In this document: positions 20,560-41,810 of the stretch, in pieces
Layout of the letters: each line of letters starts with the position of its first letter
Position numbering within the stretch: the first letter of the stretch is position 1
DNA from: Bisporella sp. PMI_857
Lineage: Eukaryota > Ascomycota > Leotiomycetes > Helotiales > Helotiaceae
Length of the DNA: 64,000 bases
Assembly: GCA_021307315.1 (NCBI GenBank)
Contig: JAJSPD010000059.1
Coordinates: forward strand, 124,001-188,000
Direction: 5' to 3'
Notes under the pieces: generated by a model
Told to the model about the DNA's origin: nothing
The model's input: only the letters and a program-made list of their open reading frames with translations
Database searches by the model: none
Program-made: the position numbers and the translations under genes

Positions 20560-22437
20560 TCAGCCGTGCCGTGGATGAAATCGAACCTTGACTGGAGGCC
20601 TCTGCGTCTGTACAAGTTGTCGACACTGGCGAACGAGATCAACATCCGGATCAAGAAGTTCCCAATCAAAGGCGAACACCAACTTTGCCAGGACAATGCG
20701 CATCTCAATCTGCGCCATTTGGAGGCCCATGCAGCCTCGTGGTCCCATAGCAAAAGCCAGATTAGTAAGCCGCCGATCCATTGACTGCCTCTCATCAATC
20801 CACCGCTCAGGCTTAAACGTGTCTGGATCAGGGAAGTTGCGTTGGTCTCGAGCTATAGTTCGTGTTTCCGCCATAACGATTACGCCTTCCGGGATATAAG
20901 TTCCATCTATGGTTTCTCCGGGTGAAACACGAGGCAAACCAGAGACGGGTGGAAACAGGCGAAGACCTTCTTCGATCACGGCTTTCAGGTAAGGAAGTCG
21001 AGCGGTAGATTCACCGTCTATCTCTGCGCTGTCCTTGAAAGCGGAACAGACTTCATCTTTGAGTTTGTCGAAGCAACGCTTATTCTGTGCCAGGAATGTG
21101 GTTGTTCCTGTCAAGACAATTGCTATGGTCTCTGCTCCTGCGACCATAAAGACACTCGCGTGCGAAGCGAGCTGATCTTCGGTCAACTCGCCTTTCAGGA
21201 CATGTGAAAAGAAATCATCCTTGGCGACATCTCCAAGTTTGACTCGTTTTTGTATCTTCTCCATGGTAAGTCGTCGGTGCATGTCGTAGATTGCAGCCTG
21301 TTCCTTCGTCATGAACCATGGACTAGCGAGTTTTAAGATTGGGAGGCGCATCAAGAGACCGGGAATGATCTGAATGAAATTCGCCGTCATAATGACCTAG
21401 AAAAGGCAGCCAGCGGTCAGTATTGCTCATCTGGAGAGAATGACTCTTGAGTCAGTAGAGGGAAAGGCACAAAGGGGCATTTACGCTTGTCCAGAAGTGT
21501 GTCTTGGCATTTTTGACTGCATCGAAAGACTCGCCAAATGCAAGTTCACCTACCCAAATGTTTTAGCCTTCATATACGATAAATGGGGAAGATTTCACAC
21601 ACCGAGGATATCAAATGTTATCCAGTTGAACGCGTCACTGATATCTACAGTCTTCTTTTCTTCGACGCTAAGACGACGAAGGGTTGCCACCAACAGATCC
21701 GTGTAATCCTGGATCACGCGTTCCTGATTCCGTAGAGCTTTGGGACTGAACCCCGGGGAAAGCAAGTCACGGGTCGCTGCAGCTTCCTCTACATCTAGGA
21801 TGTGAAACATACCAGGCGCATTAAAAGTTTTCCAAAAGATTTCCGGTTTCGGAAAGAGCTTGCGTCCTTTCAGAGGGTGGCCGTAGATATCCCGAAATGC
21901 TTGGGGTTTGATGAACGACAAGTCATTGGGGGCAATTCGGACAACGTCCCCTAGAGGTATTAGTTGCCATATACTTCAAGAGGCCTGACGTAATACCCAC
22001 CATATTTGTCATGGGCATTCTTCATTATTGTCGGCCAATTGCCGCTTGTCCATGCCCATGCATACCAGAACTATTGAGCAAGATATCAGCACAATACCAG
22101 AAGACGAGACAGCAAAGTTGCAAAAGTTTACATTTGTAATTGCCGCGAGCCTCGGCCCAGGATAGCGTGCCAAAGGGTGAAACCAAGTTGTGTAAACAAT
22201 CCAAATAGTGGAGTAGACTATGGGCTGTGAACAGTAAGTATCGACTTTTCAAACTTCACTGAGCACTCCCATACCAAAAGAAGTAATACACATGGAAGCA
22301 GTATATATGATTCGGTAAACGAGGACCAACCAACCCAGTAGCCGATGAGCTGTAAACAGTTAATATCAAAGCATCAATAGCTACATAGAGTACTCCCATA
22401 CCGAAACAAGCGATATCGAACCGAGAAATAAATACAT
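20560..22437 (-). CDS. Cytochrome P450-A, microsomal class II type
   Basis: Seven exons on the minus strand: 22437-22402, 22349-22275, 22224-22132, 22070-22001, 21950-21603, 21549-21485 and 21396-20560. They join to 1524 nt, 507 residues, with every junction in phase and GT-AG. The N terminus is a membrane anchor (about residues 1-50), then WFHPLARYPGPRLAAIT (proline hinge). The I-helix has the normal acid-threonine pair, VAGAET. The ExxR of helix K is in VIEEGLRLFPP, PERW follows, and the haem loop is FAMGPRGCMG with Cys451 as thiolate ligand. The sequence resembles the CYP65-like group that includes trichothecene C-15 hydroxylases, but the substrate is not inferable from that. It is divergent from P450-B with a 1.1-kb intergenic. 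Likely a hydroxylase in the phenylalanine-derived pathway of this cluster. Confidence 0.9.
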
Positions 22438-23530
22438 CTTAATTTCGTTGCTCGAATAAAACAGTGCAGAATCGCCAGGGTTATACAGCGACGTGCTTTA
22501 TCGAAGAAATAGTAATCTTTAATTTCGTCTTCAGCACACGAATCGTATAGACTGGCAATGAAAGAGGATCAAGTATTACGTTCTCATGAAGAAAGGGAAG
22601 TAATGCTCGCTCCCACACCAATTATATGCAATCGATAACTTCAATATTTACAAGATATAGCGTACCATAAGGCAGGGTATTCACAATCCTTAGGAAGAGA
22701 TAAGAAAAATACTTAGTAGGTCCTAGCATAAATTGGCCCAGGATTATCATCCTGGAGAATTGTAAAAGCGGCAAACCCTTCGCTTTCGCAAACACAGCCT
22801 GTAAGCCTGGGCGTGGGGTGTCGGGGATTACTTCGTGCTTGGCCGAAAGAAGGCACATACTGTAGAATGGTATGATACAATACAATCGTAAGTCCATGTT
22901 AGGCGATGTGGTGAACTACTTGTCTGCAATATACTGATACAGTACCGACAATTTACTGTATATGCGACATATCGGAGTGCCATTACGAGTACGGGGGTTT
23001 AAGGTACGTGGCCGCGGTGGTGATTGGACACAGCGCGTAAAGTAGGGCCGTAAGGCTATCTGACACTATTCAACCATCTGCATGGATAATGGCGTTTTAC
23101 GGAGACGGGTGCCAAGCCCATGCACATGCACATACAAGGGTTGGGGGGTATCGAATTCTAAGGACCCTGACCTTGTAGCAGGGATTAAGGAAACAGGGGG
23201 CCAGGGTAGGTTAGCGCCGATCCACGTGTTCTTCAGGTAGCCTCGTCATGTGGCCACAGGCACTTCCGAGCTGCGGCACGGGTTTAAGTTCGGGTTCGGG
23301 TCCTTTAGGAACCTTGTAAAAGAAGCTAAATACAGGAATTAACCCGGTATTCAATCGTTATAATTTTTACTAATTATATAAGCAATCGATATATGCTATG
23401 AGGCCTGGGCTGTAACGTCCAACCCCCGATCCTCATCTTTTGGACAATCTCTCCCGTAGATAGCCCGGTTCGCAATTTACATTGCAAATTGTCCTGAGCC
23501 TGAGGGAACTCTCGAGACTCAATTCCCGTC
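22438..23530. promoter_or_regulatory. Divergent intergenic region between the two P450 genes
   Basis: About 1.1 kb between the start codons of P450-A (-) and P450-B (+). It contains a minus-strand frame of 91 codons (22897-22622) with hydrophobic stretches and no recognised family, and a short repeated GTTCGGGT motif near 23290. Shared regulation of the two genes is an inference from the layout. Confidence 0.4.
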
Positions 23531-39985: not shown

Positions 39986-40103
39986 AGTAACTAGGTTTTG
40001 CCCACCTTTGTTGGCCTATATTCTACAAAACGCCACACCATCATCGTAACCAATCAGCACTAGCACTTCTTCGTCCTCGTGATTGGTTAAACCAGAAGTC
40101 GCA

Positions 40104-41810
40104 ATGTCGGAATCAGAAACCACCGTTGAGAAGAACGTTCTCAGTGGTGAGGCTCAAGCCGAGCAAGACATCCTGCCTCCCTCCCCGAGACCCGCCAAGA
40201 AGGGTGCCCTTGCCGATGCAAGTGCGCTTGAAGACAATATACGCAAGATCACCGGTGTTCAATGGGTTCTCGTCTGCGCTGGGCTTTACGTTTCATGCTT
40301 GATGTATGGCCTTGACACGACAATCGCGGCCGATATCCAAGGAGCCGTGACAGAAACGTTCCAGGACGTACCTCAGCTCCCATGGATTGGGGCAGGATTT
40401 CCTCTCGGCTCGGTGGCTGTTATCCTGCCATATAATGCTCTATTCGGTAAATTCAACATGAAATGGCTATATATCGCCGGAATCGTCCTATTCCAAGCGG
40501 GTTCCGCCCTCTGCGGAGCAGCACCGAACATAAATGCACTTATCGTTGGACGGGTCATTGCAGGTGCAGGCGGGACTGGAATCTACCTTGGTGGCTTGAA
40601 TCACTTCTCGTCGTTGGCTACACGAGAGGAGAGAGGCACCTACATCTCAGGCCTCAGCTTTTGCTGGGGTATTGGTACTATCCTCGGCCCAGTTGTAGGA
40701 GGTGGCTTTTCACTCAGTTCGGCGACATGGCGATGGGGATTTTACATCAACTTGGTAATCGGCGCCGTTTCCGCCCCCGTCTACCTGTTCTGCCTACCTG
40801 TCATTCGACCTTCTATAGGCGGATCGGTCCGTCAGAGATTACTTCATGTCGACTGGGTCGGCGCAGTCTTGAGCTGTGGGATTTGGGTTGCTTTCTCATT
40901 GGCGTTCGTCTCAGCTGGTGGCATCTGGGCATGGGACGACGGCAGAACCATCGCCACTATCGTCGTCTTCGCTGTCTCGTTTGTGCTTTACGCTGTGCAG
41001 CAGTACTTCTGCATCTTCACCACACCAGCCGATAGATCTTTCCCAGGTCATCTCCTCAAACGTCGGACTCAGGTCCTCACATACATCACCACGTCTTGTA
41101 CTATTACGGCCATGTATGTCACGACATTCTACATCCCTGTATACTTCCAGTTTGTCAACGGTGACTCGCCGCTGATGGCCGCTGTGCGACTACTTCCACT
41201 CCTGCTCGTTTCGATTGCATTCACTTTAGGCTCTGGCTGGGCATTGCCGAAGATTAACGTCTACGCGACTTTCTACTTAGCCTCGGGTATTCTTCTCACG
41301 ATATCTGGTGCCTTATTCTATGCCTACCTGAAACCATCCACGGCAGTAGCAAATATCTATGGATTCAGCGTCATCATGGCAGTCGGCGTCGGCTCCACGA
41401 TGCAAATGGGATATGCGGTAGCATCTCTAAAGGTCAATCCAGCGGACGCAGTGAACAGCCTAAGCCTCCAGAATATCAGCCAGATTGGATCTCAGGTACT
41501 TTGTTTGGTCATTGCTGGACGCGTATTCCAGTCTGTTGCAGTCAACAGATTGACGACAGTCCTGGCCGGCCAAGGTTTCAGCCAGGCAGATATTCAGAAT
41601 GCCGTTGCAGGAGCTCAGAGTATACTGTTCGAGCAACTCAGTGGAAATTTGAAGGCAGCAGCTCTGGAAGCCGTTACAGGCGCAATGCAGAGGACATTTA
41701 TTCTTGTCATTGTCGCTGGCGCGTTGGAGGTGCTGTGCGCTATGGCAATGAGGTGGGAAAAACTGTTCCCTGGAGAACCCACTACTGCACAAGAAACTAT
41801 TTCTGTATAA
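40104..41810 (+). CDS. MFS exporter, DHA2-like (14-TM type)
   Basis: Single exon, 568 residues from the ATG at 40104; an upstream GTG frame extension is not needed. A hydrophilic N-terminal tail of about 60 residues precedes many membrane helices. The first helix reads LYVSCLMYGLDTTIAADIQ, with the helix-1 motif (LDxTI) typical of DHA2/toxin-efflux members. The GRVIAGAGGTGIY and GPVVGGGFS motifs (antiporter motif C like) follow, then more helices through to residue 560. Proteins of this group export fungal secondary metabolites such as aflatoxin or HC-toxin precursors using the proton gradient. Being divergent from the methyltransferase, it marks the right end of the compact cluster. It is probably the exporter or self-protection pump for the product. 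Confidence 0.92.
   Translation: MSESETTVEKNVLSGEAQAEQDILPPSPRPAKKGALADASALEDNIRKITGVQWVLVCAGLYVSCLMYGLDTTIAADIQGAVTETFQDVPQLPWIGAGFPLGSVAVILPYNALFGKFNMKWLYIAGIVLFQAGSALCGAAPNINALIVGRVIAGAGGTGIYLGGLNHFSSLATREERGTYISGLSFCWGIGTILGPVVGGGFSLSSATWRWGFYINLVIGAVSAPVYLFCLPVIRPSIGGSVRQRLLHVDWVGAVLSCGIWVAFSLAFVSAGGIWAWDDGRTIATIVVFAVSFVLYAVQQYFCIFTTPADRSFPGHLLKRRTQVLTYITTSCTITAMYVTTFYIPVYFQFVNGDSPLMAAVRLLPLLLVSIAFTLGSGWALPKINVYATFYLASGILLTISGALFYAYLKPSTAVANIYGFSVIMAVGVGSTMQMGYAVASLKVNPADAVNSLSLQNISQIGSQVLCLVIAGRVFQSVAVNRLTTVLAGQGFSQADIQNAVAGAQSILFEQLSGNLKAAALEAVTGAMQRTFILVIVAGALEVLCAMAMRWEKLFPGEPTTAQETISV

What the first reader, a model, noticed from the sequence alone, without database searches (positions are those of the whole stretch)
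20560..41810. PAL plus DAHP synthase cluster without a PKS, NRPS or terpene core: a candidate new fungal phenylpropanoid-like pathway
Seen: two P450s, cytochrome b5, PAL, a shikimate entry enzyme (DAHP synthase), a Gfo/Idh/MocA oxidoreductase, a methyltransferase and a DHA2-type MFS pump, all intact, in 21 kb with three divergent gene pairs. Known: PAL commits phenylalanine to cinnamate; DAHP synthase sets shikimate flux. Known PAL-using fungal clusters such as strobilurin and squalestatin also carry a PKS; none is here. Inference: the cluster makes and exports a small oxidised, methylated cinnamate or benzoate derivative, with its own precursor supply.
Basis: partly seen in the sequence, partly recalled or inferred. 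Interest (0 to 1): 0.85.

Follow-up and report, generated by a model that had tools for sequence, protein, structure and literature searches.

The report
Mobile PAL gene cluster in fungi
A fungus carries a compact gene set that probably turns the amino acid phenylalanine into a small exported compound without the usual large assembly enzymes, and parts of the same set sit together in distantly related fungi, which points to spread between lineages.

Summary
All eight genes are there as stated, with three divergent pairs, in Bisporella sp. PMI_857 (Helotiales). No ketosynthase or NRPS condensation match lies on the whole 281-kb contig. PAL and P450b share a contig in 5 of the 6 other named species where both were listed. 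DAHPS is linked to PAL only in Bisporella and Monosporascus among listed hits, so it looks like a sporadic extra. Trees place Bisporella's cluster DAHPS with Xylariomycetidae copies, not with its own ARO3-type gene, which points to transfer between fungal classes. The PAL belongs to a distinct clade with Leu (24/24) at the substrate-selectivity position where ordinary ascomycete PALs have His (17/17 counted). Corrections: the 'oxidoreductase' is Gal80-like, lacks the EKP lysine, and needs one non-consensus splice donor; a decayed PAL fragment lies between PAL and DAHPS. Linkage of the other five genes elsewhere could not be tested, and the product is unknown. New variant of a known kind.

The parts
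20560..22437 (-). P450a, 507 aa, 7 exons; divergent partner of P450b
   Evidence: Pfam p450 on the main exon; spliced model without stops
23531..25304 (+). P450b, 552 aa, 3 exons, with an N-terminal stretch of about 75 aa without Pfam domain; only member of its family found in the genome
   Evidence: Pfam, model, relatives at 70-88% on PAL contigs of other fungi, own-genome search (79 of 104 candidates scored)
26978..27585 (-). cytochrome b5, 184 aa, 2 exons, hydrophobic C-terminal segment; divergent partner of PAL
   Evidence: Pfam Cyt-b5, model; tail anchor seen by eye
28480..30300 (+). PAL, 606 aa, single exon, MIO triad, Leu103 clade
   Evidence: (571 bits, curated cut-off 519)
32228..32437 (-). 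decayed PAL fragment (not functional)
   Evidence: tblastn 52% over 52 residues, E 9e-8
32703..34008 (+). DAHP synthase, ARO3 type, 372 aa, foreign copy
35248..36511 (+). Gfo/Idh/MocA-like, Gal80-like protein, 384 aa; intron 1 with non-consensus donor
38351..39421 (-). class I SAM methyltransferase (UbiE/Methyltransf_23 type), 294 aa, 4 exons
40104..41810 (+). MFS transporter, DHA2-like, 568 aa, single exon
   Evidence: (TIGR00711 90.8 bits, below its cut-off 230)

Best explanation
A horizontally transmitted biosynthetic gene cluster anchored on a specialised PAL. The PAL deaminates phenylalanine (or a close analogue) to a cinnamate; the two P450s, helped by the membrane cytochrome b5, oxidise it; the methyltransferase caps a hydroxyl or carboxyl; the MFS pump exports the product. 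In the Bisporella/Monosporascus line a dedicated DAHP synthase was added so that the pathway raises its own shikimate flux. Shown: gene content, lack of PKS and NRPS matches on the contig, PAL-P450b and PAL-DAHPS linkage in other fungi, foreign origin of the DAHPS copy, divergence of the PAL pocket residue. Inferred: substrate, order of steps, product, roles of Gfo, MT and MFS.
For: Gene content. PAL and P450b on a contig of equal length in Neoarthrinium moseri (also locus tags JX265_010787 and 010784), Hypoxylon rubiginosum, Xylaria scruposa, X. intraflava and Cercophora scortea. PAL and DAHPS on one 58,579-base contig in Monosporascus CRB-8-3, DL769_007653 and 007649. Cluster DAHPS copies of Bisporella and Monosporascus are sisters (100/97) and AU tests reject grouping Bisporella's with its own C1 gene (p 1.35e-11). 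Bisporella and N. moseri, of different classes, are about 88% identical in PAL and P450b while N. moseri and other Sordariomycetes of the clade are 70-76%. A DAHPS fits biosynthesis, not breakdown.
Against: P450b shows no row for 8 of 14 named PAL-clade species and is on another contig in Apodospora. DAHPS linkage seen in 1 of 4 named PAL-clade species with any DAHPS row. The P450b tree alone does not reject vertical descent (p 0.247). No shared promoter word of 9 bases or more. The Gfo protein lacks the EKP lysine. No CoA ligase was found in the cluster. No expression or chemical data.
Confidence: 0.6

Rival explanations
1. The cluster is smaller than claimed: P450b, PAL and DAHPS (perhaps P450a and b5) form it, while Gfo, MT and MFS are chance neighbours.
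For: Only PAL, P450b and DAHPS were tested for linkage. A 1.8-kb gap separates Gfo from MT. No shared promoter motif. Gfo gene of uncertain integrity.
Against: MT and MFS are a divergent pair of types common in clusters (general knowledge); the nearest Pfam-matched genes outward are unlike biosynthetic genes on the left (2EXR, HET) and an SDR at 48524 on the right.
Confidence: 0.3
2. It is a supply module: it makes cinnamate or benzoate that a PKS, NRPS or NRPS-like enzyme encoded elsewhere uses in trans.
For: In strobilurin, PAL plus an oxygenase and a CoA ligase make benzoyl-CoA for a PKS (PMC6158276 passages). The genome has many KS and Condensation matches on other contigs.
Against: No CoA ligase seen in the window (35 of the 45 listed flank ORFs scanned); no KS or Condensation match on C240. 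The AMP-binding search scored only 14 of 156 candidates, so it decides nothing.
Confidence: 0.15
3. The lyase is not an ordinary PAL: with Leu103 it acts on another aromatic amino acid (for example a para-capped tyrosine) or works as an aminomutase giving a beta-amino acid.
For: Leu103 in 24/24 clade rows against His in 17/17 counted ordinary PALs, at the position aligned with His of RtPAL and Phe of parsley PAL. Taxus aminomutase folds score close to PAL folds.
Against: Passes the curated PAL cut-off (571 vs 519 bits) and is far below that of Taxus aminomutase (344 vs 1250 bits). The model is poor over residues 78-128, so the pocket could not be judged.
Confidence: 0.15
4. A breakdown or detoxification cluster for phenylalanine or plant phenylpropanoids.
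For: PAL, P450s and an MFS pump can serve breakdown; fungal phenylpropanoid degradation clusters are described (recalled, paper not held).
Against: A second DAHPS makes no sense in breakdown; no ring-opening dioxygenase, decarboxylase or CoA-ligase domain was seen among the ORFs scanned in the window.
Confidence: 0.07

Closest known systems
Strobilurin cluster of basidiomycetes (PMC6158276, passages)
   Same: PAL inside a cluster with redox and methylation genes
   Different: Strobilurin has a PKS, a CoA ligase and a non-haem iron or flavin oxygenase route to benzoyl-CoA; none of these is seen here
Squalestatin cluster of ascomycetes (named in PMC6158276; details recalled)
   Same: PAL-derived aromatic unit in an ascomycete
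   Different: That pathway feeds a benzoyl-CoA starter to a PKS; no ketosynthase match on this 281-kb contig
Ordinary ascomycete PAL (for example P0026-P0108)
   Same: MIO triad and fold, about 60% identity
   Different: The cluster PALs are their own clade (22 rows 100/100; 24 rows 99/98) with Leu103 and Tyr191 fixed where the 17 counted others have His and Trp
AMT16 of the Alternaria AM-toxin region (PMC6989435, passages; DAHPS identity from database names)
   Same: A DAHPS-named gene listed in a fungal metabolite cluster
   Different: That cluster makes a cyclic peptide toxin; the paper passage says 13 of the 17 AMT genes have no experimental proof
C99 locus of the same genome
   Same: DAHPS next to a P450
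   Different: Holds a single-module AMP-binding/carrier/thioesterase gene and a different DAHPS type; no PAL match there

Membership tests
Phenylalanine ammonia-lyase (MIO family) | Ala-Ser-Gly cofactor triad and core catalytic residues | tested here: met
   ASG at 182-184, Y76, N244, Y331, R334, N364, E463, Q467 present
Phenylalanine ammonia-lyase (MIO family) | Score above the curated PAL model cut-off | tested here: met
   TIGR01226 571 bits, cut-off 519
Phenylalanine ammonia-lyase (MIO family) | Usual His or Phe at the selectivity position | tested here: not met
   Leu103 in 24/24 clade rows; role of the position recalled
Phenylalanine ammonia-lyase (MIO family) | Turns L-Phe into cinnamate | not testable with these tools
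   needs enzyme assay
DAHP synthase, ARO3 type | Curated family score and grouping with ARO3-type copies | tested here: met
   TIGR00034 455 bits, cut-off 173; tree
Gfo/Idh/MocA oxidoreductase | NAD-binding Rossmann domain | tested here: met
   PF01408, E 8e-16
Gfo/Idh/MocA oxidoreductase | Catalytic lysine of the EKP motif (recalled) | tested here: not met
   EWPL in the protein, aligned to EWAL of GAL80
PKS-type PAL cluster (strobilurin, squalestatin) | PKS in or near the cluster | tested here: not met
   0 of 74 scored ketosynthase candidates on C240
Conserved biosynthetic gene cluster | PAL and P450b linked in other species | tested here: met
Conserved biosynthetic gene cluster | PAL and DAHPS linked in other species | tested here: inconclusive
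   1 of 4 named PAL-clade species with a DAHPS row (Monosporascus); capped list of 120
Conserved biosynthetic gene cluster | P450a, b5, Gfo, MT and MFS linked in other species | not tested
Conserved biosynthetic gene cluster | Shared promoter motif | tested here: not met
   no 9- to 12-base word in three or more of five promoter regions; a weak test

The most novel reading that the evidence does not exclude
A family of mobile, core-enzyme-free aromatic clusters moves between ascomycete classes, built on a re-tuned MIO lyase (Leu103) plus one P450 family, and in one line it captured its own shikimate entry enzyme. The lyase uses a substrate other than plain phenylalanine, or forms a beta-amino acid, so the product class would be new to fungi.
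Probability: 0.2. Interest if true: 0.75.

Novelty: new variant of a known kind. Interest (0 to 1): 0.55.

Why it matters
Genome-mining tools that look for PKS, NRPS or terpene cores would probably miss this kind of cluster (inference). A PAL-P450b pair kept together across Sordariomycetes and a Leotiomycete is a handle for finding a hidden class of fungal aromatic metabolites. The captured DAHP synthase would be a natural case of a fungus bundling precursor supply with a pathway, useful for engineering aromatics. The Leu103 lyase clade is a directly testable specificity change in a well-studied enzyme family.

Tried and rejected
Promoter motifs: no word of 9-12 bases is shared by three or more of the five promoter regions; 86 7-mers and seven 8-mers are, without a shuffle control, and I draw nothing from them. 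A weak acetamidase match at 32172-32441(+) (E 0.18) was rejected because the opposite strand carries a PAL fragment. The AU test for P450b (p 3.6e-62) is invalid, since unnamed metagenome rows were left outside the held group; repeated without them it is not significant (p 0.247). The PAL AU groups were named after the tree was seen, so their p values (0.0111 and 4.73e-5) are only indicative. The PAL model (mean pLDDT 73.9) is below 50 over residues 78-128, which include Leu103, so no pocket was modelled. Solved-structure searches gave no specific function for either P450 or the methyltransferase. Ten paper searches showed no description of this cluster in their listings; the library holds open-licence papers only, and one relevant recalled paper is not held. 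AMP-binding search: only 14 of 156 candidates scored, undecided. Rows dropped before counts: P0132 and P0141 (fusion proteins); P0085 in the residue count (by eye it has His); trees used chosen subsets of rows (DAHPS 38 of 120 listed plus two own copies with one more row, 41 in all; PAL 42 of 120; P450b 27 of 120 plus the window protein, and 16 plus it). Other MIO genes of this genome were not in the residue count and by eye carry other residues there.
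Full report
What is there. The window is C240:124001-188000 of a 55.6-Mb, 284-contig assembly. A DAHPS identical over 372 aa, on a contig of the same length (281,121), is Bisporella sp. PMI_857 B0O99DRAFT_723048, so the genome is that fungus (genus in Helotiales, Leotiomycetes). The Gfo/Idh gene stays open only with a non-consensus donor in its first intron. Between PAL and DAHPS lies a decayed antisense PAL fragment (52% over 52 residues, E 9e-8).

No scaffold enzyme seen. 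None of 74 scored ketosynthase candidates, 85 Condensation candidates or 11 prenyltransferase (DMAT) candidates of the genome is on C240. Terpene synthases were not searched, and the AMP-binding search scored only 14 of 156 candidates. Of the 45 coding-like flank ORFs of the window listed, 35 were scanned with Pfam: CorA, HET, 2EXR, an SDR and a PRiA4_ORF3 protein turned up, no ligase, PKS or NRPS domain. In the 20 kb on either side of the window, 9 of 12 listed ORFs were scanned: another HET gene, a ClpS match and a 2OG-Fe(II) oxygenase near C240:200322.

Is it a cluster? The protein database gives the longest contig for each hit. PAL and P450b share a contig in Neoarthrinium moseri (JX265_010787 and JX265_010784, 421,126 bases), Hypoxylon rubiginosum (68,840), Xylaria scruposa (383,200), X. 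intraflava (519,416) and Cercophora scortea (3,023,896); in Apodospora they do not (31,132 and 4,735,592). That is 5 of 6 named species with both listed; the other 8 of the 14 named species of the PAL clade (rows P0002-P0022) have no P450b row in the best 120. PAL and DAHPS share a 58,579-base contig in Monosporascus sp. CRB-8-3 (DL769_007653 and DL769_007649), which has another DAHPS on a different contig. With an assumed 40-Mb genome and the largest single-species rate for all, 5 of 6 PAL-P450b linkages has probability about 1.4e-5.

History. In the DAHPS tree (41 rows) the Bisporella and Monosporascus cluster copies are sisters (100/97) and sit with Seiridium cardinale, Pestalotiopsis fici and an unnamed row (100/97), apart from Bisporella's own ARO3-type gene on C1. 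AU tests reject grouping the Bisporella cluster copy with C1 (p 1.35e-11), or with C1 and two Leotiomycetes (p 4.0e-4), and the Monosporascus cluster copy with its other copy (p 2.4e-6). Whether the Seiridium and Pestalotiopsis copies are themselves clustered is unknown. In the PAL tree Bisporella pairs with Neoarthrinium (100/97), then with Leptodontidium, also Helotiales, and an unnamed row (95/93). Bisporella and N. moseri, of different classes, are 88.0% (P450b) and 87.5% (PAL) identical, while N. moseri and the other Sordariomycetes of the clade are 70-76%. The next best match to P450b in the genome is 29% identical (79 of 104 candidates scored). Against this: the P450b tree alone does not reject vertical descent (p 0.247). 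The direction of transfer is open: the DAHPS points to a Xylariomycetidae source, while the PAL topology would also allow the reverse for N. moseri.

Mechanism. The PAL has the MIO triad and core residues, passes the curated PAL cut-off, and its best solved folds are RtPAL and parsley PAL, with Taxus aminomutase next. Its clade, counted with the Seiridium and Truncatella rows, has Leu103 in 24 of 24 rows where 17 of 17 counted ordinary ascomycete PALs have His. By alignment this is the first residue of the pair that is HQ in RtPAL and FL in parsley PAL (the role of the pair is recalled). It suggests a preference for an apolar ring, hence phenylalanine, or for an unusual analogue. Cytochrome b5 and two P450s would do the oxidations; the methyltransferase and pump would finish and export (inference). 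The Gfo/Idh protein is closest to GAL80 among solved structures, matches the Gal80p_C-like domain and lacks the EKP lysine, so it is more likely regulator-like than a redox enzyme (inference). The DAHPS would raise shikimate flux; Bisporella's copy has Ser at positions 195 and 249 where all 117 other counted rows, and the Monosporascus copy, have Pro and Gly; the effect is unknown.

Comparison. PAL inside fungal clusters is known from strobilurin, where PAL, an oxygenase and a CoA ligase make benzoyl-CoA for a PKS, and squalestatin is said there to share the PAL (PMC6158276, passages). The defining PKS is absent here. A DAHPS-named gene, AMT16, is listed in the Alternaria AM-toxin region (PMC6989435, passages), and this genome holds another DAHPS beside a P450 and a single-module AMP-binding/carrier/thioesterase gene on C99. 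The passages I saw of the N. moseri genome paper (PMC12369201) and section 9 of the N. moseri mos-cluster paper (PMC11109268; 'ammonia' not found in its main text) mention no PAL cluster. I call it a new variant of a known kind.

Limits. Linkage of five of the eight genes in other species was not tested; contig-length linkage is indirect; there are no expression or chemical data; the product is unknown.

Noticed in passing
G000 contig C99:2-9474 (L012): A second DAHPS beside a P450, a pyridine-nucleotide redox piece and a single-module AMP-binding/carrier/thioesterase gene: another aromatic cluster with its own DAHPS in the same genome (10 of 14 listed ORFs scanned).
   Followed up: partly
window 32228-32437 (-): Decayed PAL fragment in the region upstream of DAHPS, closest to the cluster PAL clade and ordinary PALs about equally.
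   Followed up: partly
window 10843-12632: Element with terminal inverted repeats (17-bp unit doubled at each end) and broken transposase-like frames; pogo/Fot1-like by eye only.
   Followed up: no
window 23531-23960: P450b has an N-terminal stretch of about 75 aa, kept in N. moseri, with no Pfam domain other than the start of the P450; ubiquitin-like by eye only.
   Followed up: no
window 35644-35720: Only a non-consensus GTTTCC donor keeps the Gal80-like gene in frame; it may be broken or oddly spliced.
   Followed up: partly
G000:C59:5219-6565 (L001): The best aromatic-lyase match of the genome (E 7e-170) looks like a histidine ammonia-lyase by eye and sits on a 50-kb contig.
   Followed up: no
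Aspergillus niger group and Neodothiora proteins P0249-P0251, P0253: P450b relatives at 61-67% identity in species with no row in the close PAL clade; the P450 may also work in other clusters.
   Followed up: no
window 5157-6815 (-) and L015:531-2867: Two heterokaryon-incompatibility (HET) genes on the left side of the cluster.
   Followed up: no
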